From Streptomyces sp. SID486 (lineage in GTDB: Bacteria; Actinomycetota; Actinomycetes; Streptomycetales; Streptomycetaceae), in assembly GCF_009865385.1 (NCBI RefSeq), contig NZ_WWJT01000748.1, positions 1-64,000 on the forward strand: 64,000 nucleotides of DNA, read 5' to 3'. The notes beneath the pieces are model-generated. The model saw only the letters and a program-made list of their open reading frames with translations, made no database searches and had not been told where the DNA came from. The position numbers were made by a program, and so were the translations under genes. Below are positions 11,739-33,803 of this stretch, in pieces (within the stretch, counting starts at the first letter, position 1; each line of letters begins with the position of its first letter).

Positions 11739-11775
11739 GGCAGCCGTCCTTTCCTGCGTGCTCTCAGGTGCGGTA

Positions 11776-13758: not shown

Positions 13759-14459
13759 GCTCCCCCCGCTCCCTGTGCCTGCATCTGCTGCCGGAAGGCC
13801 GCCAGCCGGCGGCGCGCCTGCCCGCTGATCGATCCGATCCGGCGCCCCCTTGGGGTGTCGGCGTACTCGCGCGTCAGGTACTGCTGCTTCTTCAGCTCGC
13901 TGCCGCTCCTCTCCCCCGCGAGCCGCAGAACGTCCTCGACGCGCTGCACGTAGTAGCCGAAATCCGGTTCCTGGCGGATGATCTCCCGGGCGACGTGGCG
14001 GCCGTGCTCCAGCAGGAAGTAGTCGTGCTGGCGCACCCGGTTGACCGTTCCCCGCCGCTTGCGGACCAGCAGCCCGGCGCTGCGCAGCACCGCCAGGGCG
14101 TCGTCCAGCCACTCGTAGGCGCCGAAGTGGTGGCGGAGCATCGGATAGCGCCGCACCTCCGGCTCCTCGGAGTCCAGAATGCGGCCGGCGAGGTCCAGCA
14201 GTGCTTCCTCGGGCTCGTCCTCGTAGGCCGTCAGCAACTCGTTGGCCAGGTAGTCCGGATTACGCAGCCAGAAGTCCAGCTTCTGCAGCTTGACCTGCGT
14301 CCGCATCACACCCACCGCCCGCTCCAGGCCGGACACGGCCTTCTCCACCTCGGTGAGCGGCTCGCACACCCCGTCGATCAACAGCAGCAAGCGCACCGCG
14401 TCCTGCTCCCGGCTGGTCACCGCGACCCCCGGCCCCTGCCCCGCCCCCTCGTGATCCAT
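13755..14459 (-). CDS. Middle-component-like helical/winged-helix protein, 234 aa
   Basis: The ATG at 14459 (MDHEGAGQ) is the most likely start; the open frame upstream runs into repeat-rich non-coding DNA. The protein is helical. Residues 25-75 look like an amphipathic helix pair, and residues 105-190 have a winged-helix look (AYEWLDDALAVLRSAGLLVR, then a basic turn RKRRGTVNRVRQH). The tail is very basic. It is translationally coupled (ATGA) to the Rad50-like ATPase. In ABC-three-component systems a small middle component bridges ATPase and effector; gene size, order and coupling fit, but I did not recognise a specific family. Confidence 0.75.
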   Translation of the reverse strand: MDHEGAGQGPGVAVTSREQDAVRLLLLIDGVCEPLTEVEKAVSGLERAVGVMRTQVKLQKLDFWLRNPDYLANELLTAYEDEPEEALLDLAGRILDSEEPEVRRYPMLRHHFGAYEWLDDALAVLRSAGLLVRKRRGTVNRVRQHDYFLLEHGRHVAREIIRQEPDFGYYVQRVEDVLRLAGERSGSELKKQQYLTREYADTPRGRRIGSISGQARRRLAAFRQQMQAQGAGGA

Positions 14460-14742
14460 CACGTCAGAGTAACCACCCGCACACGAGCCTGACCATGGAG
14501 TGACGAGACGAATAGGAGTGCACGCATACAGAAGCCCTGGCCCCGTCAGGCAGGTCGGCGCCACGACCGTCCACGCCCGGAGCACTGCGCGCCCGCCACT
14601 GTCCGGCGGGGCCACCACCTCCCCGTGGTGGCGGCCGGGATGCGGGTCTGCGTGGAGACGGAGCAGGCGCTGCGGTCCGTGGCACCAGGCCACACTCGCG
14701 GTCATACATGCGCTGACATCCGTGGCGGCCGCCCGCCGGGTA

Positions 14743-16959: not shown

Positions 16960-19410
16960 CTACACCAGAACGGCCGGCACGGCGTCCTCGGCCGTCCAGT
17001 CCCCCTCGAACAGGGCGGCGATCAGGCGTACGTGGTGGTCGGGGAGCTGGCTGGAGCGGTGCTTGGTGCGGGCCTTGGCCAGCCAGGCGCCGATCCGGAC
17101 GCTCTCGCCGTCGACGCGGATGCTCTCGCGGGCGGCGGGGACGCGGCCCTCGCGGTGCAGGAAGAGCTCCAGCAGTTGCACGATCTGCTCGAAGGTACGG
17201 CGGGTACGGCGGACGGAGGCGAGCGGATTCGCCTCGGGGGTGAGGCCCAGGGCGGTCATCAGCTGCTGCTGGCCATCGGCGAGGGCTTGCCAGGCGGTGA
17301 GCTGGCGGGCCAGCCAGGAACCGATCTTCACGCCGCCGAGCTGGGTGTCGCGGGTGAGGGTGGCGGGGTCGGCGCCGTCTGCGAGGTGGGCGCGCAGCAG
17401 GTGGTATTTGCGGTGCCAGTCCGCACCGTGCGGCAGGCGCCAGTCGGGGGCGAGGGCGGTGAGGGCCTCCACACGGGCGGGGTCGAGTTCGTGTCTGGTG
17501 GCGAGGTGGCGTTGTTCGGCCAGCCAGGCGCCGACCGGGGTGGTCGCGGGAGCGGCGAGGTGACCGTGCACCCGGTGGTAGTCGGCGGCTGCGGCGAGAC
17601 GGGAGCGCCAGGCGGCGTCGTGCTTGTCCCAGATCATGCCCAGCGCGTCGAGCTCGGCAATCCAGTCGGCGTCGGCATCGGCGTCGAGGCGGCCGGCTTT
17701 CGCCGCGTCGCGCATGCTGGTGATGAAGGTGCCGAGCCGGTATCCGGTGGGGTCGGTGTAGTCGGCGGGCACGTCGAGGTGGCCGTACTGGTCGCGGTAG
17801 GAACGGGCGGCGGCGAGGCCGAGGCGGCGGGAGCGGGAGACGGCCGGGTCGCGGGGGTCGAAGGAGACGAGGTCCATCGCCTGGGCGATGCGTTCGGGGT
17901 GGACGGTGAAGTCGAAGTGCCAGCGCCGGGCGATGACGTCGCTGGTCTCGCGTGGGAGGCGGTTGGCCTTGTCGGGGAGGCGTTCGAGGATGCGGTGGTC
18001 GTGGCTGGCCAGCGCGCAGGCGATCGCCCACACCGGCTCATACGCGCTGCCCAGGATGTTCTCGCTGTCGGCGCCCGGCGGGATGTAGACGGGGACGACG
18101 AGGCTGGCGGTCTTGCCGGAGATGTCCAGGCGCAGGGCGCGGCCGAGGGCCTGGACGCAGCGGATGACGCTGCGGGTGGGGTCGGCGAAGACGATCGCGT
18201 CGACGGAGGGGATGTCGACTCCTTCGGCGATCAGCTTCGAGTTGGCGAGGACCGCGGTGTCGGCGGCAGCGAAGCCGGTGAAGATGCCGGCGCGCTGGGC
18301 GGGGGTGTGCTCGCCGTGGGCGAAGAACAGCTCCGGGTCGATCCCGGGTGCAAGGTCGGGGTCCGTCCGGCGCAGCAGGCGCAGGGTGTGCGGGAGTTCG
18401 CGGGCGAAGCGGCGGGCGTCGGACACCAGATGGAAGTAGACCAGCACCTTCTTCAGGTTGTGCTCGGTCATGGCGCGCAGGACCGCCAGGTGCAGGGCGG
18501 TGGTACGCAGCGCACCGTCGTCATTCGCCTCCCGGGCGGCGGCACCCGTGGGCGTGGTGCCGGGGGCGGGCAAGTTCAGGCGGCGGCGCAGGTCGGTATC
18601 GGTCAGGGTGGGCACCACGATGCGGTAGTCCGCAGCCCGGCCGTCCGCCACTGCCCTCGCGAGGGGGTAGTCGACGACCTTCTTGCCGTACACCTGCTCG
18701 TTGTCCATCGAATTGGCGAACGCGTCCACGTCCGGCCCGGCCGGGCGCCTTCGGCGCGGGCGGGTGAGGTCGGCGGACTCCGCCAGCTCCGGGGCGGCGA
18801 AGATGCGGGGCGTGGCGGTCATGTAGAGGCGGCGGTCCGCGTGGATGCGCTTCGCGTCGTTGACGATCGCCCACTTCTTGTCGGCCCGGCCCGCGATCCG
18901 GTGAGCCTCGTCCATGACCGCCAGGTCGAACGGCGGCACCGCGAACCCGGTGTTCTGGGTCTCCTCGATCTTGGTCAGGGAGTCGTAGGTGCAGATCACC
19001 GTCAACGCCCGGAGCTGGTCGGGCCCCTCCCCCACCACCGACATCGCCGCCGCCAGCGCGAGCGGGTCACTGGTCGAGCCCACGCGCGCGGCTACCAGGT
19101 CATCACGGCCGGCAGCATCCAGGGAGGAGACGATCACCATGTGCTCGCCGTGGCCGTCGCCCCGCCACGCCAGCGCGGTCTGCGCGGCCAGGTCAAGGGT
19201 GGGGACGACGAACAGCACCAGCCGGGCGCCGAGTCCGTCCGCGACGCGGATGGACACCAGCGTCTTCCCGGTGCCTGTCGCCGACACGAACAGCGCTCTC
19301 GTCCCCGGCCGCCGCAAATGCCGCGCCAGCCGCTGAACCGCGTGCACCTGATCGGGCAACAACGTCTTCCGCCCCGACGAAGGGGACGCAGTACCGGCGA
19401 CGACACTCAT
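16960..19410 (-). CDS. SF2 DEAD/DEAH helicase with helicase-associated repeats, 816 aa
   Basis: ATG at 19410 with GAGGAAG upstream. Motifs of an ATP-dependent SF2 helicase appear in order: Walker A ATGTGKT (about 44-50), DEAH box VMDEAHRI, TATPR, then EGVDIPSVDAIVFADP (motif V) and QALGRALRLD (motif VI). After residue 500 come about four copies of the helicase-associated (HA, PF03457-type) pattern, each ending in LGTFI, GAWLAEQR, IGSWLARQ or IGAWLAKAR. Such proteins are frequent in actinomycetes and on mobile elements; the HA repeats are thought to bind nucleic acid. It follows the Dna2-like operon on the same strand after a 344-bp gap, so it may be an accessory gene of it or independent. A longer relative is at 53051-56698. 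Confidence 0.9.
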   Translation of the reverse strand: MSVVAGTASPSSGRKTLLPDQVHAVQRLARHLRRPGTRALFVSATGTGKTLVSIRVADGLGARLVLFVVPTLDLAAQTALAWRGDGHGEHMVIVSSLDAAGRDDLVAARVGSTSDPLALAAAMSVVGEGPDQLRALTVICTYDSLTKIEETQNTGFAVPPFDLAVMDEAHRIAGRADKKWAIVNDAKRIHADRRLYMTATPRIFAAPELAESADLTRPRRRRPAGPDVDAFANSMDNEQVYGKKVVDYPLARAVADGRAADYRIVVPTLTDTDLRRRLNLPAPGTTPTGAAAREANDDGALRTTALHLAVLRAMTEHNLKKVLVYFHLVSDARRFARELPHTLRLLRRTDPDLAPGIDPELFFAHGEHTPAQRAGIFTGFAAADTAVLANSKLIAEGVDIPSVDAIVFADPTRSVIRCVQALGRALRLDISGKTASLVVPVYIPPGADSENILGSAYEPVWAIACALASHDHRILERLPDKANRLPRETSDVIARRWHFDFTVHPERIAQAMDLVSFDPRDPAVSRSRRLGLAAARSYRDQYGHLDVPADYTDPTGYRLGTFITSMRDAAKAGRLDADADADWIAELDALGMIWDKHDAAWRSRLAAAADYHRVHGHLAAPATTPVGAWLAEQRHLATRHELDPARVEALTALAPDWRLPHGADWHRKYHLLRAHLADGADPATLTRDTQLGGVKIGSWLARQLTAWQALADGQQQLMTALGLTPEANPLASVRRTRRTFEQIVQLLELFLHREGRVPAARESIRVDGESVRIGAWLAKARTKHRSSQLPDHHVRLIAALFEGDWTAEDAVPAVLV

Positions 19411-19754: not shown

Positions 19755-21080
19755 TCAGGGGGCGGGGACGCGGTGGTAGGCGAGGTGGTCGAGGATGTGC
19801 TGGTGGGCTTCCCAGCCGTCTGGGAATTTGGCGGGGACACCGAGGTGGACGGGGTCGTTGGAGGGGTGGCGGTCCAGGAGGTCGGTGATGCCGGCGCGGG
19901 CGACCATGATGCAGGCGTGCCGGTGACGTGAGGCGAGCACGCACAGGCGGCCGGCTTCGAGGTGGAAGGCGGAGGCGTCACGGCGGCCGGACAGCGGGTG
20001 TAGAACGATCGTGACGGCGAATTCACGGCCCTGCAGGCGGTTGGCGGTGTCGGCGCGTACGCCCCGGGTGTGGGGGTTGTGGTTCAGAAGGTGCTGGATG
20101 TGGCGGGCCTGTTCGCGGTGGGCGGTACCAATGGCGATGTCGGCAGGCTGCAGGCGGCGGCCGTCGGGATGGTTCTCGCAAACGGCTTCGGCGCCGCGGG
20201 TCAGCAGGCGGGCGGCCAGGGCGACCGTGGCGTGGGCGGCTTCGGCGTCGATGCGTGCGGTGTGCCGGGGCGGGAGTTCGTGCAGGGCCCAGCCGGTGCG
20301 GGCGGCTTCCTCGACGGTGGCGTCGCAGCGGTCGTGCAGGCCTTGGGTGGTGAAGGTGAGGGTACGGGTGGCGGGGGCCGTTCCCGGCTGGAACGGCGTG
20401 AAGGGGTAGAACGCCCGGGAGACGATGTCGGCCGCTGAGGGCGGAAGGCGCCAGGAGACGGGCAGGGTGCGGACGACTGCGTCGTTGTAGTTCGTCAGAA
20501 CGGTGACGGCATTGTTGAGTGGGTCGTGGGGCAGGCCGATCCACCGGGGGGTGCTGATGATGGAGAACGGGTCGAGCTGCCCGGGGTCGCCCACGAGAAG
20601 GGCGCGGTCGAAGAGCTTGGCGATCAGCAGGAGGGCGTCGGAGCGCATCTGGTAGGCCTCGTCGATGATGGCCCACTGCCAGTAGGCGCTGTCGACGTAC
20701 GCCCATTTCATGGCGGTGGCGATGATCACGTCGCAGGTGAGGACGTCTTTGATGTCCGTGCTGATGATGGTGTTGGGCAGGGCCAGAACGTGTTCAGGGA
20801 CCTCGTAGGTGCCTCCGGTGAGGCGTCCCAGGCGCAGTCGGGAGGCTGTGGGGTCGGCGAGGCGGATGAGAAGGTCGTCGACCTGGTGGTTGGTCTGGGC
20901 AACGATGATGCATCGTTCGCCGGCGGCGGCGAGGGTGCGGGCGGCCCGGACAACGAGGGTCGATTTCCCAGCGCCCGGGGGCGAGTCGACGACGAGGGGC
21001 TGGGTGGTCCCGCCGGTGAGGGCGGTGAGGATGTCGGCGACGGCCGCATTGGCCAGGTCGGCGGGCGGGGTCGTGGTCAA
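19755..21080 (-). CDS. SF1 (UPF1/Dna2-like) helicase, 441 aa
   Basis: Last gene of a four-gene coupled set; the TTG start overlaps the upstream stop (TTGA). Motifs of a compact SF1B-type helicase: Walker A DSPPGAGKST at 32-41, motif II AIIDEAYQM (DEA at 140-142), motif III VGDPGQLDP at about 163-171, a motif V-like NRLQGREF near 345-352 and motif VI LASRHRHAC near 385-393. It is shorter than UPF1 or Dna2 helicases because it lacks the 1B beta-barrel insertion; the protein encoded upstream may supply that. ATP-driven unwinding or translocation on DNA or RNA ends is expected, together with the Cas4-like nuclease of the same operon. Confidence 0.88.
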   Translation of the reverse strand: MTTTPPADLANAAVADILTALTGGTTQPLVVDSPPGAGKSTLVVRAARTLAAAGERCIIVAQTNHQVDDLLIRLADPTASRLRLGRLTGGTYEVPEHVLALPNTIISTDIKDVLTCDVIIATAMKWAYVDSAYWQWAIIDEAYQMRSDALLLIAKLFDRALLVGDPGQLDPFSIISTPRWIGLPHDPLNNAVTVLTNYNDAVVRTLPVSWRLPPSAADIVSRAFYPFTPFQPGTAPATRTLTFTTQGLHDRCDATVEEAARTGWALHELPPRHTARIDAEAAHATVALAARLLTRGAEAVCENHPDGRRLQPADIAIGTAHREQARHIQHLLNHNPHTRGVRADTANRLQGREFAVTIVLHPLSGRRDASAFHLEAGRLCVLASRHRHACIMVARAGITDLLDRHPSNDPVHLGVPAKFPDGWEAHQHILDHLAYHRVPAP

Positions 21081-22585
21081 GGCTTCTCGGTCTCTTCCAA
21101 TGCGGCGGCGGGGTGGTTGTGCTGGGGGCCGCCGTGGGTCCAGGGGGTGTTCTCGCGGCTTGGGAAGGCGGGTCGGCTAAAGAACTCGGGGGCGAAGGTG
21201 AGTTCAAGCTGGTCCCCGACAGCGGGGACAGAGTCGCTTCGGGGCTTGTTCACCGTGCCGGTCAGCGTGGTCACCTCCAGCAGGAGGTCAGTGCCCTGCC
21301 CGCGTGGGGTGATGGCGCGAACGGCCAGGTGGACGCGGGGGTTGTGAGGGCCGGCGAGCAAGTGGCCGAGGTCCAGGCGCACCGGGTCGGTGGTGTGCAG
21401 GGTCAGGCGGGGGCGCAGCCGGGGGCCCCTGGCTCCGGGGATGGTGTGGCGAGCGTCGACGTCGGTGACGGTGCCGGCGAGGGCTTCTCCGGTGGTGCGT
21501 CGCTCGGCCATGAAGAAGGGGTCTTCCAGGGCGCAGTGAGCGTCGAAGGCGGCCTGGGCCAGCTCCAGGCGGGCGAGACGGCGGGCGGCGGAGACGGCGT
21601 CGTCCTTGATGGGCTGGGGACGACCGTCGGTGGTGAGGTAGGTGCGGTAGGCGGTGAAGCGGTCGCGGTCGGCGGCCCAGCGGCGTTGGGCGTCGGGTAT
21701 CTCGGGCAGGGTGCGCAGCAGGCCGAGGGCGCGCCAGGCGTCGTCCCAGGTGGGGCGGAGGTAGGTGTGGAGGAGGTCGTTCAGGCGGTCGGTGTGGCGG
21801 GCTATGGCGGCGGTGTTGCCCTCTGCGGCGGCGATGTCGTAGGCCGTGAGCAGGGGGTCGAGTTCGAGGCTGTCGAAGGAGGGGTCGGTGGCGGGGCCGG
21901 CGGGCCGGTGCAGCCGGCCGTCGGGGCCGGGGAGCTGGGGGTTTTCGGTCTCGAGGGCGGCGTGCAGGCCCGTGGTGCCGGGCGGGGGGTCGATCCAGGC
22001 GAGGAGGGCAGCAAGGTGTTCGTCCTCCAGGCGGCTCTGGCCGGTGATCCAGCGGGTGGTCAGCAGGTCGGTCAGGGCGAGCAGGAAGGCGCTTCCGGGG
22101 TGCTCGGCGTGGTCGGCGAAGAAGGTGAGCCACTGTCCGAGGCGGCCGACGCTGTAGGCTGGGTCGCTCTCCTCAGGCGGCTCGGTGAAGCGCAGGGCGC
22201 GGCCCAGCCGCTCGACGTAAGTGATCGACTTGCGGTTGGCGACCAAGAGCTGAGGGGCGTGGGTGTGCCGTTCGCGGGCGGGCTTTCTGCCTTTCGCGGG
22301 CAGGCGTTCGGTGTTGCGGAAGCTGTCGATGTAGGTGAGGACATGGTCGGCCAGCTCTTGCAGGAGTGTGGTGGGCCGGCCGTGGGGCGGGGTGACGAGG
22401 AGGTGCGGGCGGGCCGGTTCGGTGCCGAGCATGACAGCCAGCGGGGTCGCTTCGGTGCCGGAGTGGTTGAGTGGGAGGAAGACTAGGGGCCGCTCGGTGA
22501 GGTGGAAGTGGCTGACGAGGCTGGCGTCCTGGGCTGTTTGGGTCTCGGCTGCCTCCAGGCGCAGCAGGGTGGACAGGCGGCTCAT
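21077..22585 (-). CDS. Uncharacterised partner of Dna2-like operon, possible beta-barrel domain, 502 aa
   Basis: The ATG at 22585 overlaps the stop of the Cas4-like gene (ATGA). Residues 1-250 are mixed, with many conserved aromatic and charged positions (SFRNTERLPAKGR, then VANRKSITYVERLGRALRF). Residues 250-380 are helical. Residues 385-490 form a beta-rich module (GEALAGTVTDVDARHT, LRPRLTLHTTDPVRLDL, QGTDLLLEVTTLTGTV, VGDQLELTF) that resembles the 1B/OB-like barrel inserted in UPF1-, SMUBP2- and Dna2-type helicases. I infer that this protein complements the short SF1 helicase downstream. I do not recognise a named family. Confidence 0.75.
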   Translation of the reverse strand: MSRLSTLLRLEAAETQTAQDASLVSHFHLTERPLVFLPLNHSGTEATPLAVMLGTEPARPHLLVTPPHGRPTTLLQELADHVLTYIDSFRNTERLPAKGRKPARERHTHAPQLLVANRKSITYVERLGRALRFTEPPEESDPAYSVGRLGQWLTFFADHAEHPGSAFLLALTDLLTTRWITGQSRLEDEHLAALLAWIDPPPGTTGLHAALETENPQLPGPDGRLHRPAGPATDPSFDSLELDPLLTAYDIAAAEGNTAAIARHTDRLNDLLHTYLRPTWDDAWRALGLLRTLPEIPDAQRRWAADRDRFTAYRTYLTTDGRPQPIKDDAVSAARRLARLELAQAAFDAHCALEDPFFMAERRTTGEALAGTVTDVDARHTIPGARGPRLRPRLTLHTTDPVRLDLGHLLAGPHNPRVHLAVRAITPRGQGTDLLLEVTTLTGTVNKPRSDSVPAVGDQLELTFAPEFFSRPAFPSRENTPWTHGGPQHNHPAAALEETEKP

Positions 22586-23715
22586 GCGGACTCCCGCAGG
22601 TGGGTGCGTACGGCGTGGGCGTGCCGGAGGGCGGCGGCCAGGTCGGCTTGGTCTGGGGCGGGGCGGCGGGTGTCGTCGGCCAGGCGCAGGGCGGTGCTGA
22701 TGTGATCGACGCCGCCGAGGTCGTCGCGGATGTCGCTGCCCAGGACGTCGATCAGTCCTTCGTCGCGGGCTTCGCTGCGGCAGACGTAGGCCAGGTCGCA
22801 GAAATGGCGGCAGGTGGGGGTGTAGCGGGCGGGGGCGGTCTGCAGGGCCGCGGTGAGGTCCTTGGCGTCGCGGGTGGGCCGTTCGTCCCGGTCGAGGGCA
22901 AGGTCGAAGGTCGTGTGGGGCGGCAGCGCGTCGAGCAGGGGTCCGATGCGGGTGAGCCGGTTGAGCTGGCGGGTGAGGGCGGCGATCTTCTTGCGTGCGT
23001 CGACGATGCTGGCGGTGGGGTTGCGGCTGAAGTTGCGTGGGGTGATGAGGATGATGTCGTGGGAGACGTTGTCCCCGTCGAGGCCCTCCGATTCGAGGAG
23101 TTCGCGCAGCGCGATGACGTAGACGGCGGCCTGGGTGACGGCGGCGGCCACCTTCGCCGGGTCGGCGCGGCCGTCGAGGACGGCAAAGGACTTGATCTCG
23201 ATGATGTGGAAGACACCGTCGACCTGGAAGGCGACCACGTCGGGTTCCAGGTAGACGGGATGGCCGGCGACCGTGAGCTGCAGGATGGGGTGGTCCAGCA
23301 GCGTGCGCACGGAGCGGGGGGAGCGCGCCGCTTCCAGGACGGCGGTGCGGGTGTAGGCATGGCGGACTGGCAGAGAGGCGTCCTGGCTGCCGACGGCGGC
23401 GAGGTCGGTGTGGGCCGCCTCGTGCAGGGGCAGGCCGAGGACATCGCGCAGCAGGCGCAGGAGTTCGGCGCCGCCATCGGCTTTCACTTTTTGCTCGAAG
23501 ACGGCCCCGTTGCGCAGGGCGATGGAGGACTTGGCGAGCGGGCGAGGCTTGCCCAGGTGGACGGCGATCGCGTCCTTGTCGACGCCGGCGGCGTCCATCA
23601 GGGCCCGGCGGGCGCAGCCGGGGTTGGTGGTGAGGGCCGCGAGGGTGCGGGCGTCGTGCCCCTTGGCGGGGGCGGGGCCGCGCAGTGCGTCGAGCCGGTC
23701 GTTGAGCAGACTCAC
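22582..23715 (-). CDS. Cas4/Dna2-like iron-sulfur nuclease, 377 aa
   Basis: The pattern of Cas4 and Dna2 nucleases is complete: an isolated N-terminal Cys (C34, in NPGCARRALM), catalytic D159 (EPDVVAFQ), E173-I-K175 (HIIEIKSF), the QxxxY motif at Q195-Y199, and three C-terminal cysteines C302, C306, C312 (TCRHFCDLAYVCR). Four cysteines placed this way hold a 4Fe-4S cluster in the family. The expected activity is metal-dependent single-strand exo- or endonuclease. It is coupled by ATGA overlap to the 502-aa gene and sits 32 nt after the coiled-coil gene. No CRISPR array or Cas1 is present, so a CRISPR adaptation role is unlikely; with the SF1 helicase it makes a split Dna2-like pair. Confidence 0.88.
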   Translation of the reverse strand: MSLLNDRLDALRGPAPAKGHDARTLAALTTNPGCARRALMDAAGVDKDAIAVHLGKPRPLAKSSIALRNGAVFEQKVKADGGAELLRLLRDVLGLPLHEAAHTDLAAVGSQDASLPVRHAYTRTAVLEAARSPRSVRTLLDHPILQLTVAGHPVYLEPDVVAFQVDGVFHIIEIKSFAVLDGRADPAKVAAAVTQAAVYVIALRELLESEGLDGDNVSHDIILITPRNFSRNPTASIVDARKKIAALTRQLNRLTRIGPLLDALPPHTTFDLALDRDERPTRDAKDLTAALQTAPARYTPTCRHFCDLAYVCRSEARDEGLIDVLGSDIRDDLGGVDHISTALRLADDTRRPAPDQADLAAALRHAHAVRTHLRESA

Positions 23716-23747
23716 GGATCTTCCTTGCGGGATGGGTGAGGTGGCGA

Positions 23748-24608
23748 TCAGGGGACGGAGCGCAGTCGGCGGGCGGACTGGAAGGAGCCGCCGAATAGCA
23801 GGCCGGCATCGTCGAGCTGGCGGCGGGCGCGGGCGGCGGCCTGGGTGCGGGTAGTGCTATCGCTGGTGGCGTGCAGGGCGAGTTCATCCTGGGCGGCACG
23901 GCGCAGCAGCGTGAGGTCGATGGGGAGGCCGGCTTCGGTCGGGTGTGGTGCAGGGGGCTGGGCGCCGGGGATGTTGCGTGCGTAGTGCAGCAGGAGGTGG
24001 CGGGCGGGCAACGGCAGGGTGCCGCCGCTGACGCGATCTGCGGCGTCGGCGATGTTCAGCGCGCCTGTGAGGAAGTGGACGCGGGCGCTGAGCGGTCCCA
24101 CAATGCGCTGTTCCAGGGGCCAGGTGCTGACTGTGAGCAGGCCGCGGGCGGGTGAGAGCAGATCGGAAGTGAGGGCCGGGCACAGGTAGTAGGGGCGGGC
24201 GCCGGGTGCGGAGCGGTAGGAGCGTTCCTCGTCGCGGCGCAGGCTGGTCAGCCGGGAGGGCGCCAGGGCACCGGCGAAGAAGGCTTCGTGAACGGTGCTG
24301 ATGAGCTTGGGAGCGGCGGGCACGGCGAGCAGCGTCAGGACCTGGTGGACCTGCTCGCGCGCGGGCAACACGACCGGTGGCTGCCCCGCCGGTTTGTTCT
24401 CGGACAGGATGCGGCGCGTCCCGTCGTCAGCGGATGTCTCCTCGGTGTCCTCGGCCTGCTCGAACAGGGCGTCCCAGGCGCGCTGGGTGCGGCGCAGTTC
24501 GGCGCGGAGTTGTCTGACCTGCTCGCTGTCACGAGCCAGTTGGGCGCTCCGCATGGCCTGCTGCAGCTGTTGCATGCGTTCTTCGAGTGCGTCCAGATGC
24601 TCCTGCAT
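23748..24608 (-). CDS. Coiled-coil protein, first gene of the Dna2-like operon, 286 aa
   Basis: I prefer ATG 24608 with AAGG 8 nt upstream over the GTG at 24617. Residues 1-55 are a strong coiled coil (MQEHLDALEERMQQLQQAMR onward). After an acidic linker the rest is helical and unassigned, with a conserved-looking PYYLCPALTSDLLSPARG segment near 140-158. No catalytic motif is visible. It may be the oligomerising or DNA-recognition subunit of the operon. Its start faces sbcD across a 134-bp divergent promoter region. Confidence 0.75.
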   Translation of the reverse strand: MQEHLDALEERMQQLQQAMRSAQLARDSEQVRQLRAELRRTQRAWDALFEQAEDTEETSADDGTRRILSENKPAGQPPVVLPAREQVHQVLTLLAVPAAPKLISTVHEAFFAGALAPSRLTSLRRDEERSYRSAPGARPYYLCPALTSDLLSPARGLLTVSTWPLEQRIVGPLSARVHFLTGALNIADAADRVSGGTLPLPARHLLLHYARNIPGAQPPAPHPTEAGLPIDLTLLRRAAQDELALHATSDSTTRTQAAARARRQLDDAGLLFGGSFQSARRLRSVP

Positions 24609-24742
24609 GGCGGCCACCTTACCGCATTCCAGTGTTTTCCAGATTTCTCCTGTGATTGCTGTTGTAGAGTTTCTGTCACTTCGTCAACTCCCGCTGGTGC
24701 GGGAGCGTCGGACAGTCCTGCCTGCACCGAGGAGAGCCGTCC
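24609..24742. promoter_or_regulatory. Divergent promoter region with hairpin
   Basis: 134 bp separate the start of the Dna2-like operon (minus) from sbcD (plus). It is clearly A+T-richer than the surroundings, as expected for two back-to-back promoters. A 7-bp stem hairpin (24688-24694 with 24699-24705, 4-nt loop) lies 38 bp before the sbcD start and could be an operator or mRNA leader structure. GAGGAGAG at 24731-24738 is the sbcD ribosome-binding site. Confidence 0.55.
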
Positions 24743-26026
24743 ATGAAAGCCCTGCACACATCCGACTGGCACCTGGGCCGCACGCTGCAGCGCCGCTCCC
24801 GGGACGCCGAGTTCGACGCTGTCCTGGCCGAGATCACGGCCATAGCGGAGGACGTGCAGCCGGACCTGATCGTGCACAGCGGTGACCTGTTCGACTCCTA
24901 CCGGCCCGCGCACAAGGACGTCCTGCGCGCGATGCGCTGCCTCAATGGCCTCGCCAGCATCGCCCCCACCGTGGTCCTGGGCGGCAACCACGACTCCCCC
25001 GAGTTGTTCGACCTGCTGAGCTACGTCTGCACCCTGCGGCCGTACGCCGGCCAGGATCGTCTGTGCTTCGTGCACAGCCGTGGCGACAGCGACCCTGGGA
25101 CGGTGCTCGACTTCGCCAGCCGCGACGGACGCGAGCGGATCCGCCTTGCTGCCCTCCCCTACGTGCACCCCAACCGCTACCTGCATCTCTTCCCCAACTT
25201 CGGGACCACCGAGGGGGCCTACGCGGCTGGCCTGCGCACCCTGCAGGACGGCCTGCTCGCCCGGCTGCGCGACGGCTACGCCCCGGACCGGGACGTGCTG
25301 CTGTTCACCGCCCACCAGTACGTGGCCAGCGCCGTCCCCGCGCAGAGCGAACGCATGTGGGAGGCGCGCGAGCCCTACGCCACCGACCCCGCCGCCCTGC
25401 CGGCTGTTGCCTACTGCGCGCTGGGCCACATCCACAAGCCGCAGCCGGTCGGGACCGGCCGGCTGCCGGCTCGCTACGCCGGCAGCCCCCTGCAGATGGA
25501 CTTCGGCGAGAGCGAGGAGACCAAGAGCGTCACCGTCGTCGAAGCGGGGCCCGGCCGGCGCACCCTCATCACCCCGCACACCCTGCACGCCGGACGGCGC
25601 CTGGCCCATTTCCACGGCACCCTCGAGGAACTGCGGGCCGACGCGGACCAGTACAGCGGCGTCTACCTCAAGGCCGTCATTTGCAGCGACGAGCCCGTCC
25701 TCCGGCTGGGGGACAAGGTCGCCGAGCTGGTGCCCCAGGCAATCGTGGTGAGCATCGAGGAGGACTGCGCAGCCACCCGCACCAGCGCCCTCACCAGTGC
25801 TGACGCGTCCGAGGACGGCACCGTGGACCTCACCGCGACGTTCGGCAGCTACCTCGCCGACCGCGGCACCCCTGGGCAGAGCGCCGACGAGGTGGTGGCT
25901 GCCTTCGCCGACCTCCTCGCCGCGCCGGAGTCCACGCTGCCCGCCTCCCCCGCCGAGCAACTCCTCACCGAGGCCCTCGCCACCCCCTGGACCGGCACCG
26001 CCGGCAGCCGAACGGAGACGGCATGA
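24743..26026 (+). CDS. sbcD: SbcD-like Mre11-family nuclease subunit, 427 aa
   Basis: All five metallophosphoesterase motifs are in order: D8 and H10 (TSDWHLG), D48 (HSGDLFD), N82-H83 (GGNHDS), a histidine in FTAHQYV near 193, and GHIHKPQP near 228-235. This is the two-metal active site of SbcD/Mre11. The capping region and a C-terminal helical segment that should bind the SbcC coiled coil follow. With SbcC it forms an ATP-regulated exo/endonuclease that opens hairpins and processes blocked DNA ends, in the cytoplasm. It overlaps sbcC by 4 nt (ATGA). Streptomyces chromosomes usually carry an sbcDC pair; placement here within accessory cassettes suggests a second, possibly defence-associated copy, which I cannot check. 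Confidence 0.95.
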   Translation: MKALHTSDWHLGRTLQRRSRDAEFDAVLAEITAIAEDVQPDLIVHSGDLFDSYRPAHKDVLRAMRCLNGLASIAPTVVLGGNHDSPELFDLLSYVCTLRPYAGQDRLCFVHSRGDSDPGTVLDFASRDGRERIRLAALPYVHPNRYLHLFPNFGTTEGAYAAGLRTLQDGLLARLRDGYAPDRDVLLFTAHQYVASAVPAQSERMWEAREPYATDPAALPAVAYCALGHIHKPQPVGTGRLPARYAGSPLQMDFGESEETKSVTVVEAGPGRRTLITPHTLHAGRRLAHFHGTLEELRADADQYSGVYLKAVICSDEPVLRLGDKVAELVPQAIVVSIEEDCAATRTSALTSADASEDGTVDLTATFGSYLADRGTPGQSADEVVAAFADLLAAPESTLPASPAEQLLTEALATPWTGTAGSRTETA

Positions 26027-29000
26027 AGATCGTCAGCCTGACCTTCTCGGGCCTGCGCAGCTATCCCGGCACCTGCGGCCCGCTCGACTTCACCGGCAAG
26101 AGCCTCGTCGGCATTCTCGGCGACACCGGCGCCGGCAAGACAAGCCTCCTGGAGGCCATCACCGCCGGCCTGTACGGCAGATGCTCCTGGACCGACCGCG
26201 CGGCTCAGCTGCGGGCCGACGACTCCCCAACGATGATGATCGACCTGACGTTCGCCGTGGACGGCCGTCAATGGAGGGTGCATCGCGTCTTCCACGAGAC
26301 CCGCCCCACCCAGGCACGGCTGACCGGCCCGGACAACAAGAACATCGACGGCGTGCGCGCCGTCGACGACGCCATCCGTAGCCTCATCGGCATCGACTAC
26401 GCCACCTTCCACTCGTCCGTTCTTATCCCGCAGGGCCGCTTCGGCGAACTGCTCAACGCCAACGACGCCGAGCGCACCCGAATCCTGAAGTCCATTTTCG
26501 GCGTCGAAGAGCTCCACCGAGTCCGCCAGCTCGCGCTCGATGCGGCCTCGCACCTCAACGAGCTGCTGCACCAGGCGGAGCGGGAGAACGACCGGCTGCA
26601 CGAAGATCCGCGGGCCCAAGCGGTAAACGCACGCGAACGCCACGACCAGGCCCTTGGTGTCGCTGCCGACCTCGACAACCGCCGGTCCCAGCTGCGTCGG
26701 CTGCGCACCGAGGCTGCCCGGGCCAAGCAGCACGCCCGCCTCAGCGCGGGCGCCGCCGCCGCGCTCCAGGAGCGCCGTATCAGCGACTATCACCGCACCA
26801 CGGAAGCCGTGCAACAGGCTCAAGCTGAACTGCAGCGTCTAGAGGACAAAAACGCCGCAGCCGAAAGCACCGCCCAGGCCGACCTCGAAACGGTCACCTC
26901 CCAGCAGAACGAGGCGGACTCCGCGGGGCTGGCCGCCGCGGTTCTGGCAGCGGCGGCCCAGGTGCTCAGCGACGTGCCCCGTCGGCTGACCACTCTCGAA
27001 CAAGAGGAGAGCGCGCACACCCGGCTCCTGACCGAACTCGAGACCGAAGAGGAGGCACTGTCCCGGCGCGCCGCCGACCTGGACGACGAGGACCGGCGGG
27101 CCGACGCCCTGCGCAGCCGCGTACGGGATGGTGAGGACGAGGCAGCCGACGCCGGCGAGACTCTGCAGATGCTGACGGACGCCGTCCGCGCCGGCGTCGA
27201 GGCAGCCGGCGCACTGGCCCAGCAGCGGGCCGCCCAGGCCACCACCGACCACAAGCTCACCGCGCTGCTGCAGGCACCCCCGGCCGACACGCTGGACGCG
27301 GCGCGGACCGAACTACGTCGTGCCCAGGGCATGCTGGAGGACACTCGGCGCAGGGAGGCCGCGCACGCGGCGGGCAGCGGCCTGGTCGCCGGAGACGGCT
27401 GCCCTGTCTGTGTGCAGCCGCTTCCCGGCAATTACCGGCCACCGCAGCCACAGGACGCCGATACCCTCGCGCGAGCCGAGACGGCGGTAGAGGCAGCCAT
27501 GGCCGCGCTGACGGCCGCCGAGCGGGAGCACACCCGTCACACCCACGAAGTCGAACTGCTCCGAGCGGCCCTGAGCGAGCAGCGGCGCAAGGTGCAGCAG
27601 GCCACCGACCGGCTGCAGGCAGCCCTGCCCCCGCTTCACGCACACGCCCTGCGGCTGGCGGCCCAGACGGCTCATCCCCAGTCGGCGACGTATGCCAAGG
27701 AGGTGGAGGACACCGCCGCGGCCGCGTTCTTCGCCCTCGCCGACCCCGCCACACCGGCGGACCACCGGGAGGCGGCGCTGCACGCTCTGCTCGGCGAGCC
27801 CCGCGACCGGGTCACGCAACTGCAGGAGACAGTCGTCGCCGGCCGAGCCGAGCTAACGCAGGCAGAGACCGCCCTGGCCGCCAAGCGGGCCTCGCTGACG
27901 GCGGACACCCGCGCGGCGGACCGGAGCCGCACGCAAGCACAGCAGGCCCAGCACCATCTGGCAGAAAGGCGGCTCAGTGTCCTGGCGAGCCTGTCCTCTC
28001 TGCCCGGGCCGATCCGCGCGCATCTGCCCCAGCAACCCGACCTCCCGACAGCGCATGATCTGGAGGCCGCCACCCAGGCCGTCCGGCAGGAGCAGGACCG
28101 TCACGAGGAACTGGCCGAACGGCACGCGGAACTGCGCACGCTGCTGCAATCACTGCTGGCCGAGCGGGAGAAGCTGGCCGAGCGTAGACGCTGTGAGGTC
28201 ACCGAACCCCTGCACCGTCTGGAGGCCGGACTACACCGGTGGGCAGACAGCGCGCGCAGCGCAGCCGAGCTGATCGAGGAAGGACAGCGCCCGGCACTCA
28301 CCCGCCCTCACGGAACCGGTGATGCAACAACCACCCAGGAGTACGCCGCCGCCCTTGAAACGTTCACCACGCGGCTGCTGGCATCCCTCGACGAGCACGA
28401 AACCGTCGCGCGGGCGGCCATGGCAGACCTGGCCGCCCAGCTTGCCGTGCACGCCGACGCACTGGCCGCCACCTACCCCTGCATCGCCGCCGCGCTGGTC
28501 GCCCCCGGCACGGACCCCCTGGGCCCCGAGTTGCTGGACAGCCTGACCAGCCAGGCCGGAACCCTCCGCAGCGAGGCCGCCCGCGCGCTGCGGGAAGAGC
28601 AGGACGCCCTGTCCCAGATCCCGCATAAGGACCGCCTCATGACGGCGATCGACGCCGGACAGCGCCAGAAGGCCGCATGGCAGACCGTGGCCGCGCACCT
28701 AACGGACGGAAAGTTCCCCGGTCACCTCACCGACCTGCGGACCCGCGCGCTGCTCGCACACGGCAGTGAGCTGCTGCAGCAGTTGTCCGGAGGACGGCTG
28801 GGCTTCGCCGACAACTTCGACATCGTCAACCTCGGAAGCCACAACCGCCGCAGCTCGCGCACCCTCTCCGGCGGCGAGACCTTCCAGGCTTCCCTCGCCC
28901 TATCCCTCGCCCTGATGGAAATGCACAGCCGCAGCGGCACCCGTCTGGAGAGCCTCTTCCTCGACGAAGGCTTCGGCACCCTGGACACCGCCGCCCTCGA

Positions 29001-29205
29001 CAGCGCCCTGCAGGTCCTGCGCACCCAGGTCGGCCCCGACAAGCTGCTCGCCGTCATCAGCCACCTGCGCCCCGTCGCCGAGACTGTCAACGACGTCCTA
29101 TGGGTGGAGAAGGATCACCGCGGCTCCCGGGCCCGCTGGCTTACCGCGGCCGAGCGCGACTCCCTCGTCCGCGACGACCTGTACAACCTGACGGACCCGG
29201 CATGA
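26023..29205 (+). CDS. sbcC: SbcC-like Rad50-family ATPase subunit, 1060 aa
   Basis: N-terminal Walker A GDTGAGKTS at 33-41 and a Q-loop segment IPQGRFGELL, then two long coiled-coil arms (about 180-450 and 480-900) flanking a zinc hook CPVC at about 460-463. The C-terminal half has the ABC signature LSGGETFQASLALSLAL near 948, Walker B SLFLDEGFGTLD near 978 and the H-loop VISHLRPV. This is a full-length SbcC/Rad50. It works with the SbcD product, using ATP-driven conformational change to license cleavage of DNA ends and hairpins. The stop is followed by a lower-GC stretch with an HNH gene, so the transcript probably ends there. Confidence 0.95.
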   Translation: MKIVSLTFSGLRSYPGTCGPLDFTGKSLVGILGDTGAGKTSLLEAITAGLYGRCSWTDRAAQLRADDSPTMMIDLTFAVDGRQWRVHRVFHETRPTQARLTGPDNKNIDGVRAVDDAIRSLIGIDYATFHSSVLIPQGRFGELLNANDAERTRILKSIFGVEELHRVRQLALDAASHLNELLHQAERENDRLHEDPRAQAVNARERHDQALGVAADLDNRRSQLRRLRTEAARAKQHARLSAGAAAALQERRISDYHRTTEAVQQAQAELQRLEDKNAAAESTAQADLETVTSQQNEADSAGLAAAVLAAAAQVLSDVPRRLTTLEQEESAHTRLLTELETEEEALSRRAADLDDEDRRADALRSRVRDGEDEAADAGETLQMLTDAVRAGVEAAGALAQQRAAQATTDHKLTALLQAPPADTLDAARTELRRAQGMLEDTRRREAAHAAGSGLVAGDGCPVCVQPLPGNYRPPQPQDADTLARAETAVEAAMAALTAAEREHTRHTHEVELLRAALSEQRRKVQQATDRLQAALPPLHAHALRLAAQTAHPQSATYAKEVEDTAAAAFFALADPATPADHREAALHALLGEPRDRVTQLQETVVAGRAELTQAETALAAKRASLTADTRAADRSRTQAQQAQHHLAERRLSVLASLSSLPGPIRAHLPQQPDLPTAHDLEAATQAVRQEQDRHEELAERHAELRTLLQSLLAEREKLAERRRCEVTEPLHRLEAGLHRWADSARSAAELIEEGQRPALTRPHGTGDATTTQEYAAALETFTTRLLASLDEHETVARAAMADLAAQLAVHADALAATYPCIAAALVAPGTDPLGPELLDSLTSQAGTLRSEAARALREEQDALSQIPHKDRLMTAIDAGQRQKAAWQTVAAHLTDGKFPGHLTDLRTRALLAHGSELLQQLSGGRLGFADNFDIVNLGSHNRRSSRTLSGGETFQASLALSLALMEMHSRSGTRLESLFLDEGFGTLDTAALDSALQVLRTQVGPDKLLAVISHLRPVAETVNDVLWVEKDHRGSRARWLTAAERDSLVRDDLYNLTDPA

Positions 29206-32098: not shown

Positions 32099-32560
32099 GT
32101 GGCCCAGAGCACCACCTATCGCACCAGCACTAAGCAGGACACCCTCGCCGACCACGTTGCAGAGTTCCTCAGCCGGGTCTCACGCGTACTCCGGAACTTG
32201 GCCGACTCGGCTGACTACGCGGCGAAGATGGTGCGGAAAGCGGACGCGGCACGGCGAAGCTGAACCGGCATCACCCAGGTAGGCCAGCAGACGTGCTCCG
32301 CGCGCGAGACGATCAACCGCGCCCTCACCGCCCTCGTGTGCGCCGGTCTCGCCATCGTCCGTTTCCACGTTCCCGGCCTGCGCTGGCACCGCGGACTCAA
32401 AGCCCGCGCCACGATGGAGGCCTTCTTCCGCCACCACATCCCCGCCAAGCGGCCCACCGGGGGCGACGGCCTGTTCGCCGCGCTGTGCGGCACGCTCCGA
32501 GACGAGTTTTCGGAGCTAACGGACGTCATAGAACACAAGAGCCCGGTGCACCGGCCGTGA
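32099..32560 (+). pseudogene. Small gene ending at 32263, with in-frame continuation to 32560
   Basis: A GTG at 32099 with GAGGAG upstream opens a 54-aa frame, helical and basic at its end (KMVRKADAARRS), which stops at TGA 32261-32263. The same frame continues without another stop for 98 codons: an RETINRALTALVCAGLAIVR segment resembling a winged helix, then a compact tail. Either a longer gene was split by a nonsense mutation, or a small gene precedes the fragment of another. The end overlaps the 3' end of jetD tail to tail by 35 bp. Confidence 0.45.
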
Positions 32561-33803
32561 TGTCGGCCAGCAGTGCGGGAAGCAGATCCTCCTCGTAGAC
32601 CGGCACGGAGTGTTTGCGCATCACGGGTACCAGGTGGTCGTCCCAGGGGGCATCCGAGCCCTGCAAATGCAGGACGTCAGTGCCCTCGGGGACGGCCGCG
32701 AGGTAGTCGGCTGCGCCCATCCGCCACGCAACCGCGGAAGGTGCTGCAGCCAGGAGGGCACGCATGTGTGCCAGGCCGGCCTGGTCGAAGTCAGCGCGGA
32801 CGGCGATGTTCCATCCGGTGTCCGCCAGAGCACCAATGGCTTCGCATTCCCGTTGGGATGGTGTGCCGGCGGTGCAGATCACCCGTGGTCTCACGAGGTT
32901 GTCCCGGGCCAAGGCCTCCGTGCTGGCTGCGGCCAGCACGGAGGGGTTCTCGGTAACGAAGACCCACGTGCCGGTGGTCTCGGGAGGCTCCCAGTCGATA
33001 TGGGCCAGCTCGCGGGGCGGCAGGGTGAATGTCGCACCGGGCGGGATCCGCCACCCCCGGGGCGTGACGCCGGTGATGATGAGCCCACCGAGCAGATCGT
33101 CGCAGTCCACCCCCAGACGTGCCCAGCCCGAACGCACGGGGGTACCAGAGGATCCGGTCAGGGCCAGCACGAGTGCGGGCAGCGCGCCCGTATCAAGGGC
33201 GTGGGGATTGCCGGATACCAGGAGGCGGCGGTCGATACGCCGCCCCGGCGGAGGCAGTCGCGCGGCAACCTGCAGCGCCTGGCTTAGCAGTTCGGCGGGA
33301 TCCGGCGCATTGAGCAGGCGGGTAACCCATCCCAAGGTGCGCAGGCGGGTGAAGACGGTCTCTGGGGCGACGAGATCGCGGACATGAGCAGGTAAATCAG
33401 CGGCCTTGCTTTCGAGTTGAGCGCGGATACGGTCGGCCGCGACGGCCTGTTGGGTACGGCGGCGGGCGTTTGCCGCCAACCGTCGGTTGCAGGCGTGGGC
33501 TGCGACGGCCCCGGGGGTAAGGCGGGGGCCGCGGGTGGCCAGGGCAGCGGTCAATCGTTCCAGGCTGACGCGGCGGCTTTGGCCCGGTTCCAGGGGCCGT
33601 CCGTCGATGAGACCGGCCGCTGCGGCGCGCTGTACTGGTTCTGCGGGCACCGCCACTGTCACGGCGGGACCGCTGGTGAGGGACTCGTCTCCGCGCCGGT
33701 CGGCCACGGCCGCCAGGGCCTTCCACAGCCAGGCGAGTTCGGGGCTGAGCAGCGGGGCCAGATCGGCACCGTCGCATGCTCCCTCGCACAGGACGCAGCT
33801 CAT
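32526..33803 (-). CDS. jetD: JetD, TOPRIM-like nuclease of a Wadjet system (DUF2399), 425 aa
   Basis: ATG at 33803, overlapping the jetC stop by 4 nt. The C-terminal third shows the TOPRIM-like core of the family: FVTENPSVL with E285, a strand and turn VICTAGTPSQ at 308-317, and VRADFDQAGL with the acidic DFD at 338-340. A late acidic helix VYEEDLL follows at 402-408. The N-terminal 240 residues are helical with a CxxC near the start. In Wadjet systems JetD is the nuclease that cleaves circular DNA after the JetABC condensin-like motor has extruded a loop, which restricts plasmids. Confidence 0.9.
   Translation of the reverse strand: MSCVLCEGACDGADLAPLLSPELAWLWKALAAVADRRGDESLTSGPAVTVAVPAEPVQRAAAAGLIDGRPLEPGQSRRVSLERLTAALATRGPRLTPGAVAAHACNRRLAANARRRTQQAVAADRIRAQLESKAADLPAHVRDLVAPETVFTRLRTLGWVTRLLNAPDPAELLSQALQVAARLPPPGRRIDRRLLVSGNPHALDTGALPALVLALTGSSGTPVRSGWARLGVDCDDLLGGLIITGVTPRGWRIPPGATFTLPPRELAHIDWEPPETTGTWVFVTENPSVLAAASTEALARDNLVRPRVICTAGTPSQRECEAIGALADTGWNIAVRADFDQAGLAHMRALLAAAPSAVAWRMGAADYLAAVPEGTDVLHLQGSDAPWDDHLVPVMRKHSVPVYEEDLLPALLADITAGAPGSCVL

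What the first reader, a model, noticed from the sequence alone, without database searches (positions are those of the whole stretch)
19755..24608. Split Dna2-like helicase-nuclease operon with coiled-coil partner
Seen: four minus-strand genes, three joined by 4-nt overlaps. They encode a coiled-coil protein, a Cas4/Dna2-type Fe-S nuclease with complete motif set (C34, D159, E173-x-K175, QxxxY, C302/C306/C312), a 502-aa protein with a beta-rich C-terminal module, and a 441-aa SF1 helicase without a 1B insertion. Known: Dna2 joins an Fe-S RecB-like nuclease, a beta-barrel and an SF1B helicase in one chain. Inference: this operon is the same machine cut into separate subunits plus a recognition subunit. 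I know of no described bacterial defence system with this exact gene set.
Basis: partly seen in the sequence, partly recalled or inferred. Interest (0 to 1): 0.78.

Follow-up and report, generated by a model that had tools for sequence, protein, structure and literature searches.

The report
Split Dna2 nuclease-helicase beside plasmid defences
Some soil bacteria carry what looks like a DNA-end-destroying machine, built like the eukaryotic break-processing pair Mre11-Rad50 plus Dna2 but cut into separate proteins, often next to known anti-plasmid or anti-phage systems, which suggests it degrades foreign DNA.

Summary
The four genes are real. The nuclease is accompanied by the 502-aa protein and helicase in 67 of 69 related loci, by the small first protein in 63. 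All nine nuclease motif residues are invariant in 36 of 36 sequences. Predicted folds and profiles fit a Dna2-type machine cut between the 1B barrel and the helicase core. The family is not confined to defence: the helicase is in 143 of 150 genomes of the genus; the window holds a second, accessory copy.

The operon faces its own SbcD-SbcC (Mre11-Rad50), and the block lies between a complete Lamassu and a complete type II Wadjet. The block is in 18 of 392 genomes, window's included; in 8, Wadjet type I or II directly follows the helicase. Near-identical blocks carry different Wadjet types, switching 4-10 bp after the helicase stop, in two genome pairs. A sister form faces a pPIWI-RE island in 11 of 15 loci. 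In 4 of 5 finished chromosomes the SbcCD form is within 25 kb of an end.

Best reading: an end-processing, DNA-degrading arm of anti-plasmid/phage defence. Function is inferred, untested.

The parts
19755..21080 (-). SF1 helicase core (Dna2/UPF1 type, 441 aa, TTG start) without its own 1B barrel
   Evidence: best PDB profile hit DNA2 E 7.9e-11; hhalign to a fused RecB-like/RNase_H_2/helicase family prob 99.5, E 3.8e-23
21077..22585 (-). 502-aa linker subunit: predicted RNase H-like N-terminal part, long helices, C-terminal beta barrel, invariant PWTHGGP tail
   Evidence: model pLDDT 86; Foldseek/VIA matches
22582..23715 (-). Fe-S PD-(D/E)XK nuclease (Cas4/RecB/Dna2 type, 377 aa)
   Evidence: motif residues invariant 36 of 36; model pLDDT 89; Cas4, RecB, AdnA, AddB, Dna2 matches
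23748..24608 (-). 286-aa protein with presumed N-terminal coiled coil and conserved LRRDEER region; role unknown
   Evidence: present in 63 of 69 loci
24609..24742 (.). 134-nt region between the two divergent arms of the block
   Evidence: no sigma-70-like site found
24743..26026 (+). SbcD (Mre11) with phosphoesterase motifs DWH, GD, GNHD, GHIH
   Evidence: TIGR00619 E 1.4e-33, over cut-off; motifs; a separate, higher-scoring SbcD lies on another contig
26023..29205 (+). SbcC (Rad50) with Walker A, CPVC hook, LSGGE signature, DEG
   Evidence: TIGR00618 E 1.2e-52, below its curated cut-off; motifs
16960..19410 (-). Neighbour: SF2 helicase with HA repeats; also directly downstream of the SF1 helicase in L146 and L158, but not found in Streptomyces typhae L003, whose block is 99.4% identical
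9660..14693 (-). Neighbour: complete Lamassu (LmuA 9660-11738, LmuB 11776-13749, LmuC 13755-14693)
   Evidence: PADLOC E 1e-203, 8.8e-199 (run on 11776-13734), 8.2e-90
32526..41039 (-). Neighbour: complete type II Wadjet (JetD2 32526-33803, JetC2 33800-38038, JetB2 38035-39408, JetA2 39405-41039)
   Evidence: PADLOC E 3e-52, 0, 3e-237, 0; no internal stops

Best explanation
The four genes encode a Dna2-type nuclease-helicase divided into subunits: an Fe-S RecB/Cas4-fold nuclease, a linker subunit that carries the 1B barrel and a probably degenerate RNase H-like part, the SF1 helicase core, and an extra small protein. In some actinomycete lineages a three- or four-gene version is a common chromosomal gene set, probably of DNA repair. 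A divergent accessory version has been joined to its own SbcC-SbcD and works as an end-processing arm of defence: a neighbouring system (Wadjet most clearly; pPIWI-RE for the sister form; Lamassu perhaps, in the window) cuts or recognises foreign DNA, SbcCD binds and clips the ends, and the Dna2-like complex unwinds and degrades the DNA. Shown: gene set, motifs, predicted folds, co-occurrence, neighbourhoods, replacement of one Wadjet type by another behind near-identical blocks. Inferred: that the proteins form one complex, that it degrades foreign DNA, and the order of steps.
For: Folds and motifs. Co-occurrence in 67 of 69 loci. SbcD faces the operon in 18 of 33 cc-positive genomes, always in the same divergent arrangement, with SbcC detected in 17 of the 18 (window included). 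Wadjet I directly after the helicase in 4 and Wadjet II in 4 of those 18; a JetC3 piece 1.5 kb beyond SbcC in a ninth; Wadjet II 3.3 kb beyond SbcC and Lamassu on the other side in the window. The whole row SbcC-SbcD / four genes / JetABCD on a linear plasmid. DNA identity of 98.0% and 93.0% across the blocks ends 10 and 4 bp after the helicase stop where Wadjet I replaces II (proteins 96-99% identical in the first pair). pPIWI-RE island divergent from the sister form in 11 of 15 loci. SbcD and SbcC beside the operon in another lineage and orientation, Actinoplanes L034.
Against: No function was measured. A helicase of this family in 143 of 150 genomes of the genus points to a housekeeping origin. 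Counts are not independent: SbcCD-linked rows fall almost in one clade and the other cc-positive rows of the genus in one. Actinomadura sp. DC4 (L071) groups with the SbcCD-linked clade but has no SbcCD match in its locus. Lamassu and Wadjet are themselves enriched at chromosome ends (PMC10482375, passages), so neighbourhood may partly be shared location. Lamassu and the HA helicase are not kept: S. typhae L003 is 99.4% identical to the window from 219 bp past the helicase stop through SbcCD into Wadjet, but neither was found in its 6.9 kb beyond. Eight of the 18 blocks showed no Wadjet or Lamassu by the queries used, their flanks being only partly scanned. SbcCD is broken in G022 and fragmented on plasmid NZ_CP027023 while the other genes stay open. 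Barrel and RNase H-like matches are moderate (Z 7.9 and 9.3; no Foldseek E at or below 0.001; the tool warns that Z under 8 may mean only a common arrangement). hhalign of the 502-aa protein and of the nuclease to the fused family was not significant.
Confidence: 0.55

Rival explanations
1. A repair module, not a weapon: the accessory block mends chromosome breaks made by the neighbouring nucleases or during transfer, by resecting ends for recombination, as Mre11-Rad50 with Dna2 does in eukaryotes.
For: The helicase is near-universal in the genus, which fits a housekeeping repair role; SbcCD and Dna2-type enzymes are repair factors (recalled; PMC6943134 and PMC12047661 seen only as listing and abstract start).
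Against: All 10 genomes tested have a separate SbcD over the family cut-off, the six with a linked block included, so a second set is needed only if its task differs. Linkage to Wadjet and to pPIWI-RE is better explained by a shared target.
Confidence: 0.2
2. A telomere or conjugation module of linear replicons: the block sits at ends to process or recombine them, and defence neighbours are passengers of the same terminal regions.
For: SbcCD form within 25 kb of an end in 4 of 5 finished chromosomes, in three of them at both ends, against 0 of 6 for the pPIWI form (Fisher p 0.015); on a linear plasmid about 6-16 kb from its end; ttrA helicase genes lie at ends (PMC8743542, passages).
Against: Present in only 18 of 392 genomes, so not needed for linear replicons; G110 has it 523 kb inside; the sister form is internal and tied to pPIWI-RE; breakpoints lie at the helicase stop beside Wadjet.
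Confidence: 0.13
3. A self-standing defence system that both senses (SbcCD at DNA ends) and destroys phage DNA; neighbouring systems are ordinary defence-island company.
For: Constant gene content with or without a detected neighbour; a dense defence island in the window; downstream company differs between window and S. typhae with a 99.4% identical block.
Against: Exchange of Wadjet I for II at the helicase stop, in two pairs, suggests a specific partnership.
Confidence: 0.1

Closest known systems
Eukaryotic DNA2 with Mre11-Rad50(-Nbs1)
   Same: Fe-S RecB-fold nuclease, beta-barrel region and SF1 helicase in this order (order recalled), working beside Mre11-Rad50 at DNA ends
   Different: Three separate proteins here; an RNase H-like part and an extra small protein are added; bacterial; accessory copies lie at defence loci
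Fused bacterial TM0106-type RecB-like nuclease / RNase_H_2 / SF1 helicase (TIGR03491)
   Same: Order nuclease, RNase_H_2, helicase in one chain (two proteins scanned); helicase homologous
   Different: One chain; no significant profile match for the 502-aa protein or the nuclease
AdnAB / AddAB / RecBCD
   Same: RecB-family nuclease coupled to SF1 helicase for end degradation; nuclease fold similar
   Different: Their helicases are UvrD-like SF1A and fused to the nuclease (recalled)
Wadjet (JetABCD)
   Same: Frequent neighbour
   Different: No Jet protein belongs to the block itself
pPIWI-RE island (PADLOC Ppr)
   Same: Divergent neighbour of the sister form
   Different: The published three-gene island, in the passages of PMC3702460 that I saw, does not include these genes
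Mokosh (MkoA) and PLuB helicases
   Same: Helicase core similarity
   Different: Only the helicase part of those long proteins matches

Membership tests
DNA2 | Fe-S RecB-like nuclease with D, ExK, QxxxY and four cysteines | tested here: met
   Invariant in 36 of 36; fold match incl. Dna2 Z 6.1; cluster itself not testable
DNA2 | SF1B UPF1-like helicase core | tested here: met
   DNA2 best PDB profile hit, then IGHMBP2 and UPF1
DNA2 | 1B beta barrel between nuclease and helicase | tested here: inconclusive
   Barrel in the 502-aa protein, IGHMBP2 Z 7.9 over 87 residues at 2.2 A; unrelated barrels at Z 6-6.7
DNA2 | All in one chain | tested here: not met
   Three ORFs; therefore called Dna2-like, not DNA2
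TM0106-type fused nuclease-RNaseH-helicase (TIGR03491) | Match to TIGR03491 and PF13482 | tested here: not met
   No such NCBIfam or Pfam hit in the nuclease or 502-aa protein; hhalign not significant
SbcCD (Mre11-Rad50) | SbcD phosphoesterase motifs; SbcC Walker motifs, zinc hook, signature | tested here: met
   SbcC below the curated TIGR00618 cut-off
Wadjet | JetA, JetB, JetC, JetD among the block's own genes | tested here: not met
   None of the block's genes matches a Jet model; a separate complete Wadjet II lies 3.3 kb beyond SbcC
Lamassu | LmuB with LmuA effector among the block's own genes | tested here: not met
   SbcC matches an LmuB model in part (E 1.1e-16); true Lamassu is the neighbour at 9660-14693
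Mokosh | MkoA over its full length | tested here: not met
   441-aa protein matches MkoA positions 771-1075 of 1112 only; partner gene not tested
Catalogued defence system (PADLOC-DB 2.0.0) | Any model matching the nuclease or 502-aa protein | tested here: not met
   0 families for both at E up to 0.1; newer catalogues not searched
Defence system | Protection against phage or plasmid | not testable with these tools
   needs experiment

The most novel reading that the evidence does not exclude
Bacteria have assembled a Mre11-Rad50 plus Dna2 pathway, known as a pair from eukaryotic break resection, as the second stage of SMC-based immunity on linear replicons: Wadjet opens circular plasmids, SbcCD and the split Dna2 complex then destroy every uncapped end, while the carrier's own protein-capped linear ends are spared. 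The block is an interchangeable cassette whose sister form serves pPIWI-RE.
Probability: 0.3. Interest if true: 0.9.

Novelty: new variant of a known kind. Interest (0 to 1): 0.72.

Why it matters
What happens to plasmid DNA after Wadjet cuts it was not explained in the passages I saw; this block is a concrete candidate and makes the question testable. If right, it shows a bacterial counterpart of the Mre11-Rad50/Dna2 partnership used for immunity, and may help explain why SMC-type defences gather at the ends of linear chromosomes. It also offers a naturally separated version of Dna2, useful for dissecting how nuclease, barrel and helicase work together, and points to an uncharacterised helicase family carried by nearly all sampled members of the genus.

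Tried and rejected
Rejected: that the four genes are a defence-only operon (helicase near-universal in the genus). Rejected: that the block is itself Lamassu or Wadjet. Dropped: the HA helicase and Lamassu as fixed members, because neither was found beside the 99.4% identical block of S. typhae. Rejected as membership: the fused TM0106 family, because hhalign of the 502-aa protein (prob 1) and the nuclease (prob 3.6) was not significant, although domain order fits. Tried without result: PDB sequence profile of the 502-aa protein gave no hit; of the nuclease only two engineered or de novo proteins over profile positions 17-46, judged spurious; of the small protein only weak matches, mostly to coiled or helical stretches; Pfam scans of 36 members each found no family in more than 2 (502-aa) or 5 (nuclease) members, the only informative one being PDDEXK_1 in 2 of 36 nucleases; no relative in viral contigs; no sigma-70 promoter pattern. 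The RNase H-like reading rests on fold search alone; its first beta strand lacks the D-x-E I would expect of a DnaQ-type exonuclease (by eye), so I call it probably degenerate. Ten paper searches listed no description of the block: (open-licence papers only; I saw listings, abstract starts, and passages of PMC8743542, PMC10482375, PMC12624138, PMC10586767 and PMC3702460). Rows set aside before counts: draft contigs, G719's 1.2 Mb one included, were left out of the finished-chromosome comparison; L057 and L064 end inside the nuclease gene; G022, whose SbcD is truncated and SbcC missing, is counted among the 18. The control '0 of 70 loci L002-L071 with Jet, Ppr or Lmu hits' became 2 of 70 when further queries were added: L003, which carries the window's own JetD2, and L029, a JetC3-like match. 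Plasmid NZ_CP107835 matches only 35% of the 502-aa protein, with no gene annotated there; NZ_LT559118 was not followed.
Full report
OBSERVATION. The four minus-strand genes exist at the stated coordinates. The nuclease, 502-aa and helicase genes are joined by two 4-nt overlaps; the small first gene ends 32 nt before the nuclease starts.

CO-OCCURRENCE. A scan of one genome per species with the nuclease gave 69 loci, all actinobacterial by record title. In 67 of these 69 the 502-aa protein and the helicase are present beside it; in the other two the contig ends inside the nuclease. The small protein is present in 63 of 69; the six without it are all Actinacidiphila. A sample of 396 genomes of the phylum found the 502-aa protein in 14, in 3 of 236 genera, so the set is limited to some actinomycete lineages as far as tested.

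CORE AND ACCESSORY COPIES. In the window's genus (the nearest named record is Streptomyces typhae at 99% nuclease identity) the helicase is found at E 1e-60 or better in 143 of 150 genomes; only the helicase was counted. The window's genome holds two copies: this one and one on contig C316 at 45% identity for the 502-aa protein. The two core copies read with wide flanks (L151, L152) have nuclease, 502-aa protein and helicase but no small protein or SbcCD; for C316 the genome-wide searches found the small protein and the linked SbcD only on C731. A tree of 122 helicases puts the core copies, the SbcCD-linked copies and the remaining cc-positive copies of the genus in separate groups: 1, 2 and 1 label changes, none of 500 shuffles as low; the one other row within the 20-row set of SbcCD-linked copies is Actinomadura sp. 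DC4, L071, which has no SbcCD match in its locus (quick method, SH-aLRT support only; L175 is a long branch).

WHAT THE SUBUNITS ARE. Nuclease: AlphaFold model pLDDT 89; structural neighbours are Cas4, RecB, AddB, AdnA, Exo5, MGME1 and Dna2 (best Z 9.9, 196 residues, 4.8 A). Helicase: the profile's best solved relative is DNA2 (E 7.9e-11), then IGHMBP2 and UPF1. The 502-aa protein: model pLDDT 86. Its residues 357-469 align with the barrel of IGHMBP2 (Z 7.9, 87 residues, 2.2 A) and of Sen1 and senataxin; unrelated barrels follow at Z 6-6.7; Foldseek puts Sen1 first but with E 0.015, and the tool warns that Z under 8 may mean only a common arrangement. Its residues 30-351 align with KOD-type family B DNA polymerases over their residues 135-352, which I recall as the exonuclease domain (Z 9.0-9.3, 181-184 residues, 3.4-3.6 A). 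In IGHMBP2 the matched barrel residues 37-141 precede the helicase core (helicase match from residue 197), so a gene boundary between barrel and core is what a split Dna2/UPF1-type enzyme would show. A fused family with the order RecB-like nuclease, RNase_H_2, SF1 helicase exists in other actinomycetes; its helicase is clearly homologous, but the 502-aa protein and the nuclease give no significant profile match. The split-Dna2 reading is well supported for nuclease and helicase and moderately for the linker.

THE BLOCK IS LARGER THAN FOUR GENES. Directly divergent, 134 nt away, lie SbcD and SbcC with the expected motifs. They are extra copies: this genome has another, higher-scoring SbcD on contig C218, and the five other tested genomes with a linked block also have a separate one. 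In 392 genomes of the genus the small protein marks 33; in 18 of the 33, window included, the operon faces SbcD in the same divergent arrangement, with SbcC detected in 17 (in G022 only a truncated SbcD remains). In Actinoplanes sp. RD1, a different lineage, SbcD and SbcC follow the helicase on the same strand. In the window and in two related blocks (L146, L158) an SF2 helicase with HA repeats follows the SF1 helicase on the same strand, but not in S. typhae (below), so I treat it as a neighbour.

DEFENCE NEIGHBOURS. In the window a complete Lamassu lies downstream and a complete type II Wadjet lies 3.3 kb beyond SbcC. In 8 of the other 17 SbcCD-linked loci Wadjet follows the helicase directly: type I in L147, L159, L160, L161; type II in L148, L149, L162, L163. 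A ninth, L158, has a JetC3 piece 1.5 kb beyond SbcC, near the contig end. A linear plasmid carries SbcC-SbcD, the four genes and JetABCD in one row; a second plasmid has the four genes and JetABCD with SbcC/SbcD in fragments. In 11 of the 15 cc-positive loci without SbcCD the operon faces a pPIWI-RE island; 88 of 382 genomes of the genus have the pPIWI-RE nuclease domain, so only a subset of such islands is involved. With the first query set 0 of 70 loci L002-L071 gave a hit; with further queries 2 did: L003, the window's near-identical relative, and Dactylosporangium vinaceum L029, a JetC3-like match about 2 kb past the helicase, so 1 of 67 outside the genus. The queries come from this genus, some loci are short, and distant systems could be missed. 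The remaining eight SbcCD-linked loci (L139, L140, L142, L144, L145, L146, L150, L173) were only partly scanned; seen there were a TerD and a NACHT-type gene in L142, a PD-T4-6-like kinase in L150 and a GajB-like helicase in L139.

EXCHANGE AT THE HELICASE STOP. L147 (Wadjet I) and L148 (Wadjet II) are 97.98% identical in DNA over 5540 bp, and the identity ends 10 bp after the helicase stop; L149 (Wadjet II) and L160 (Wadjet I) are 93.0% identical over 9.6 kb, ending 4 bp after the stop (gene ends). In the first pair nuclease, 502-aa protein and helicase are 99, 96 and 97% identical. Two replacements of one Wadjet type by another at this point argue for a partnership. A result on the other side: the window and S. 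typhae L003 are 99.4% identical from 219 bp past the helicase stop through SbcCD into Wadjet (window 19536-33707, to the end of L003), yet neither the HA helicase nor Lamassu was found in the 6.9 kb of L003 beyond that point. So the downstream side of the helicase is a hot spot of exchange; the Lamassu link is seen in one strain only, and recombination near chromosome ends could explain part of the pattern.

POSITION. Among chromosome-scale contigs the SbcCD form lies 4.7, 6.7, 24.2 and 24.3 kb from an end in four of five genomes, in three of them at both ends, and 523 kb inside in the fifth; the pPIWI form is more than 1 Mb inside in 6 of 6 (Fisher p 0.015; rows not independent, contig ends taken as chromosome ends). 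PMC10482375 (passages) reports that Lamassu and Wadjet are enriched at the extremities of these chromosomes, so the position fits company with them and cannot by itself show a telomere role. Whether the window's contig (131,757 bases) begins at a telomere was not tested.

MECHANISM. Wadjet restricts smaller circular plasmids by cleavage and Rad50 complexes recognise DNA ends (PMC10586767, passages). SbcCD targets DNA termini, and Streptomyces ends are bound by terminal proteins (PMC12624138, passages). The simplest joint reading is: a neighbour cuts or flags foreign DNA; SbcCD clips the ends; the nuclease-helicase unwinds and degrades; the host's capped ends escape. Every step after gene content is inference. 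Rivals are repair of self-damage, a telomere or transfer function, and a self-standing system.

NOVELTY. No PADLOC-DB 2.0.0 model matches the nuclease or the 502-aa protein, and the plasmid annotation calls the first three proteins hypothetical. Ten paper searches listed nothing that describes the block; subscription papers and newer catalogues were not searched. I rate it a new variant of a known kind: a Dna2/RecB-type nuclease-helicase in separate subunits, joined to SbcCD and often beside SMC-type defences.

CHANGES AFTER CHECKING. 

Noticed in passing
window 9660-14693 and 32526-41039: Complete Lamassu and complete type II Wadjet in the same 64 kb, on either side of the block.
   Followed up: partly
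window 6995-8143: 382-aa protein matching PD-T7-1 (E 1e-90) and PD-T7-5 models of PADLOC: a further defence candidate.
   Followed up: no
window 16960-19410: HA-repeat SF2 helicase; 22 of the 40 listed plasmid homologues (of 733 records) lie within 30 kb of a record end (hand count), reminiscent of the terminal ttrA helicases; kinship with ttrA not tested.
   Followed up: partly
window 53051-56662: 1203-aa helicase-like protein that clusters with the HA helicase by BLAST and matches restriction enzyme-methyltransferase models in part.
   Followed up: no
L142:808-10203 (G129, near a chromosome end): TerD-domain protein, 1800-aa NACHT-type NTPase and a 391-aa protein next to the block; no PADLOC match: possible undescribed defence operon.
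   Followed up: no
G022 (L148) and plasmid NZ_CP027023 (L225): SbcD truncated with SbcC missing, and SbcC/SbcD in fragments, while the nuclease-helicase genes and Wadjet remain open.
   Followed up: partly
contig C316 of the window's genome (L002): Core three-gene copy; the helicase family is in 143 of 150 sampled genomes of the genus and I found no assigned function.
   Followed up: partly
502-aa protein residues 481-487: PWTHGGP tail invariant in 36 of 36 sequences after the barrel; possible contact with the helicase.
   Followed up: no
window 19536-33707 against L003: S. typhae shares the block and Wadjet at 99.4% DNA identity but not the downstream side (HA helicase, Lamassu): recent exchange next to the helicase gene.
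   Followed up: partly
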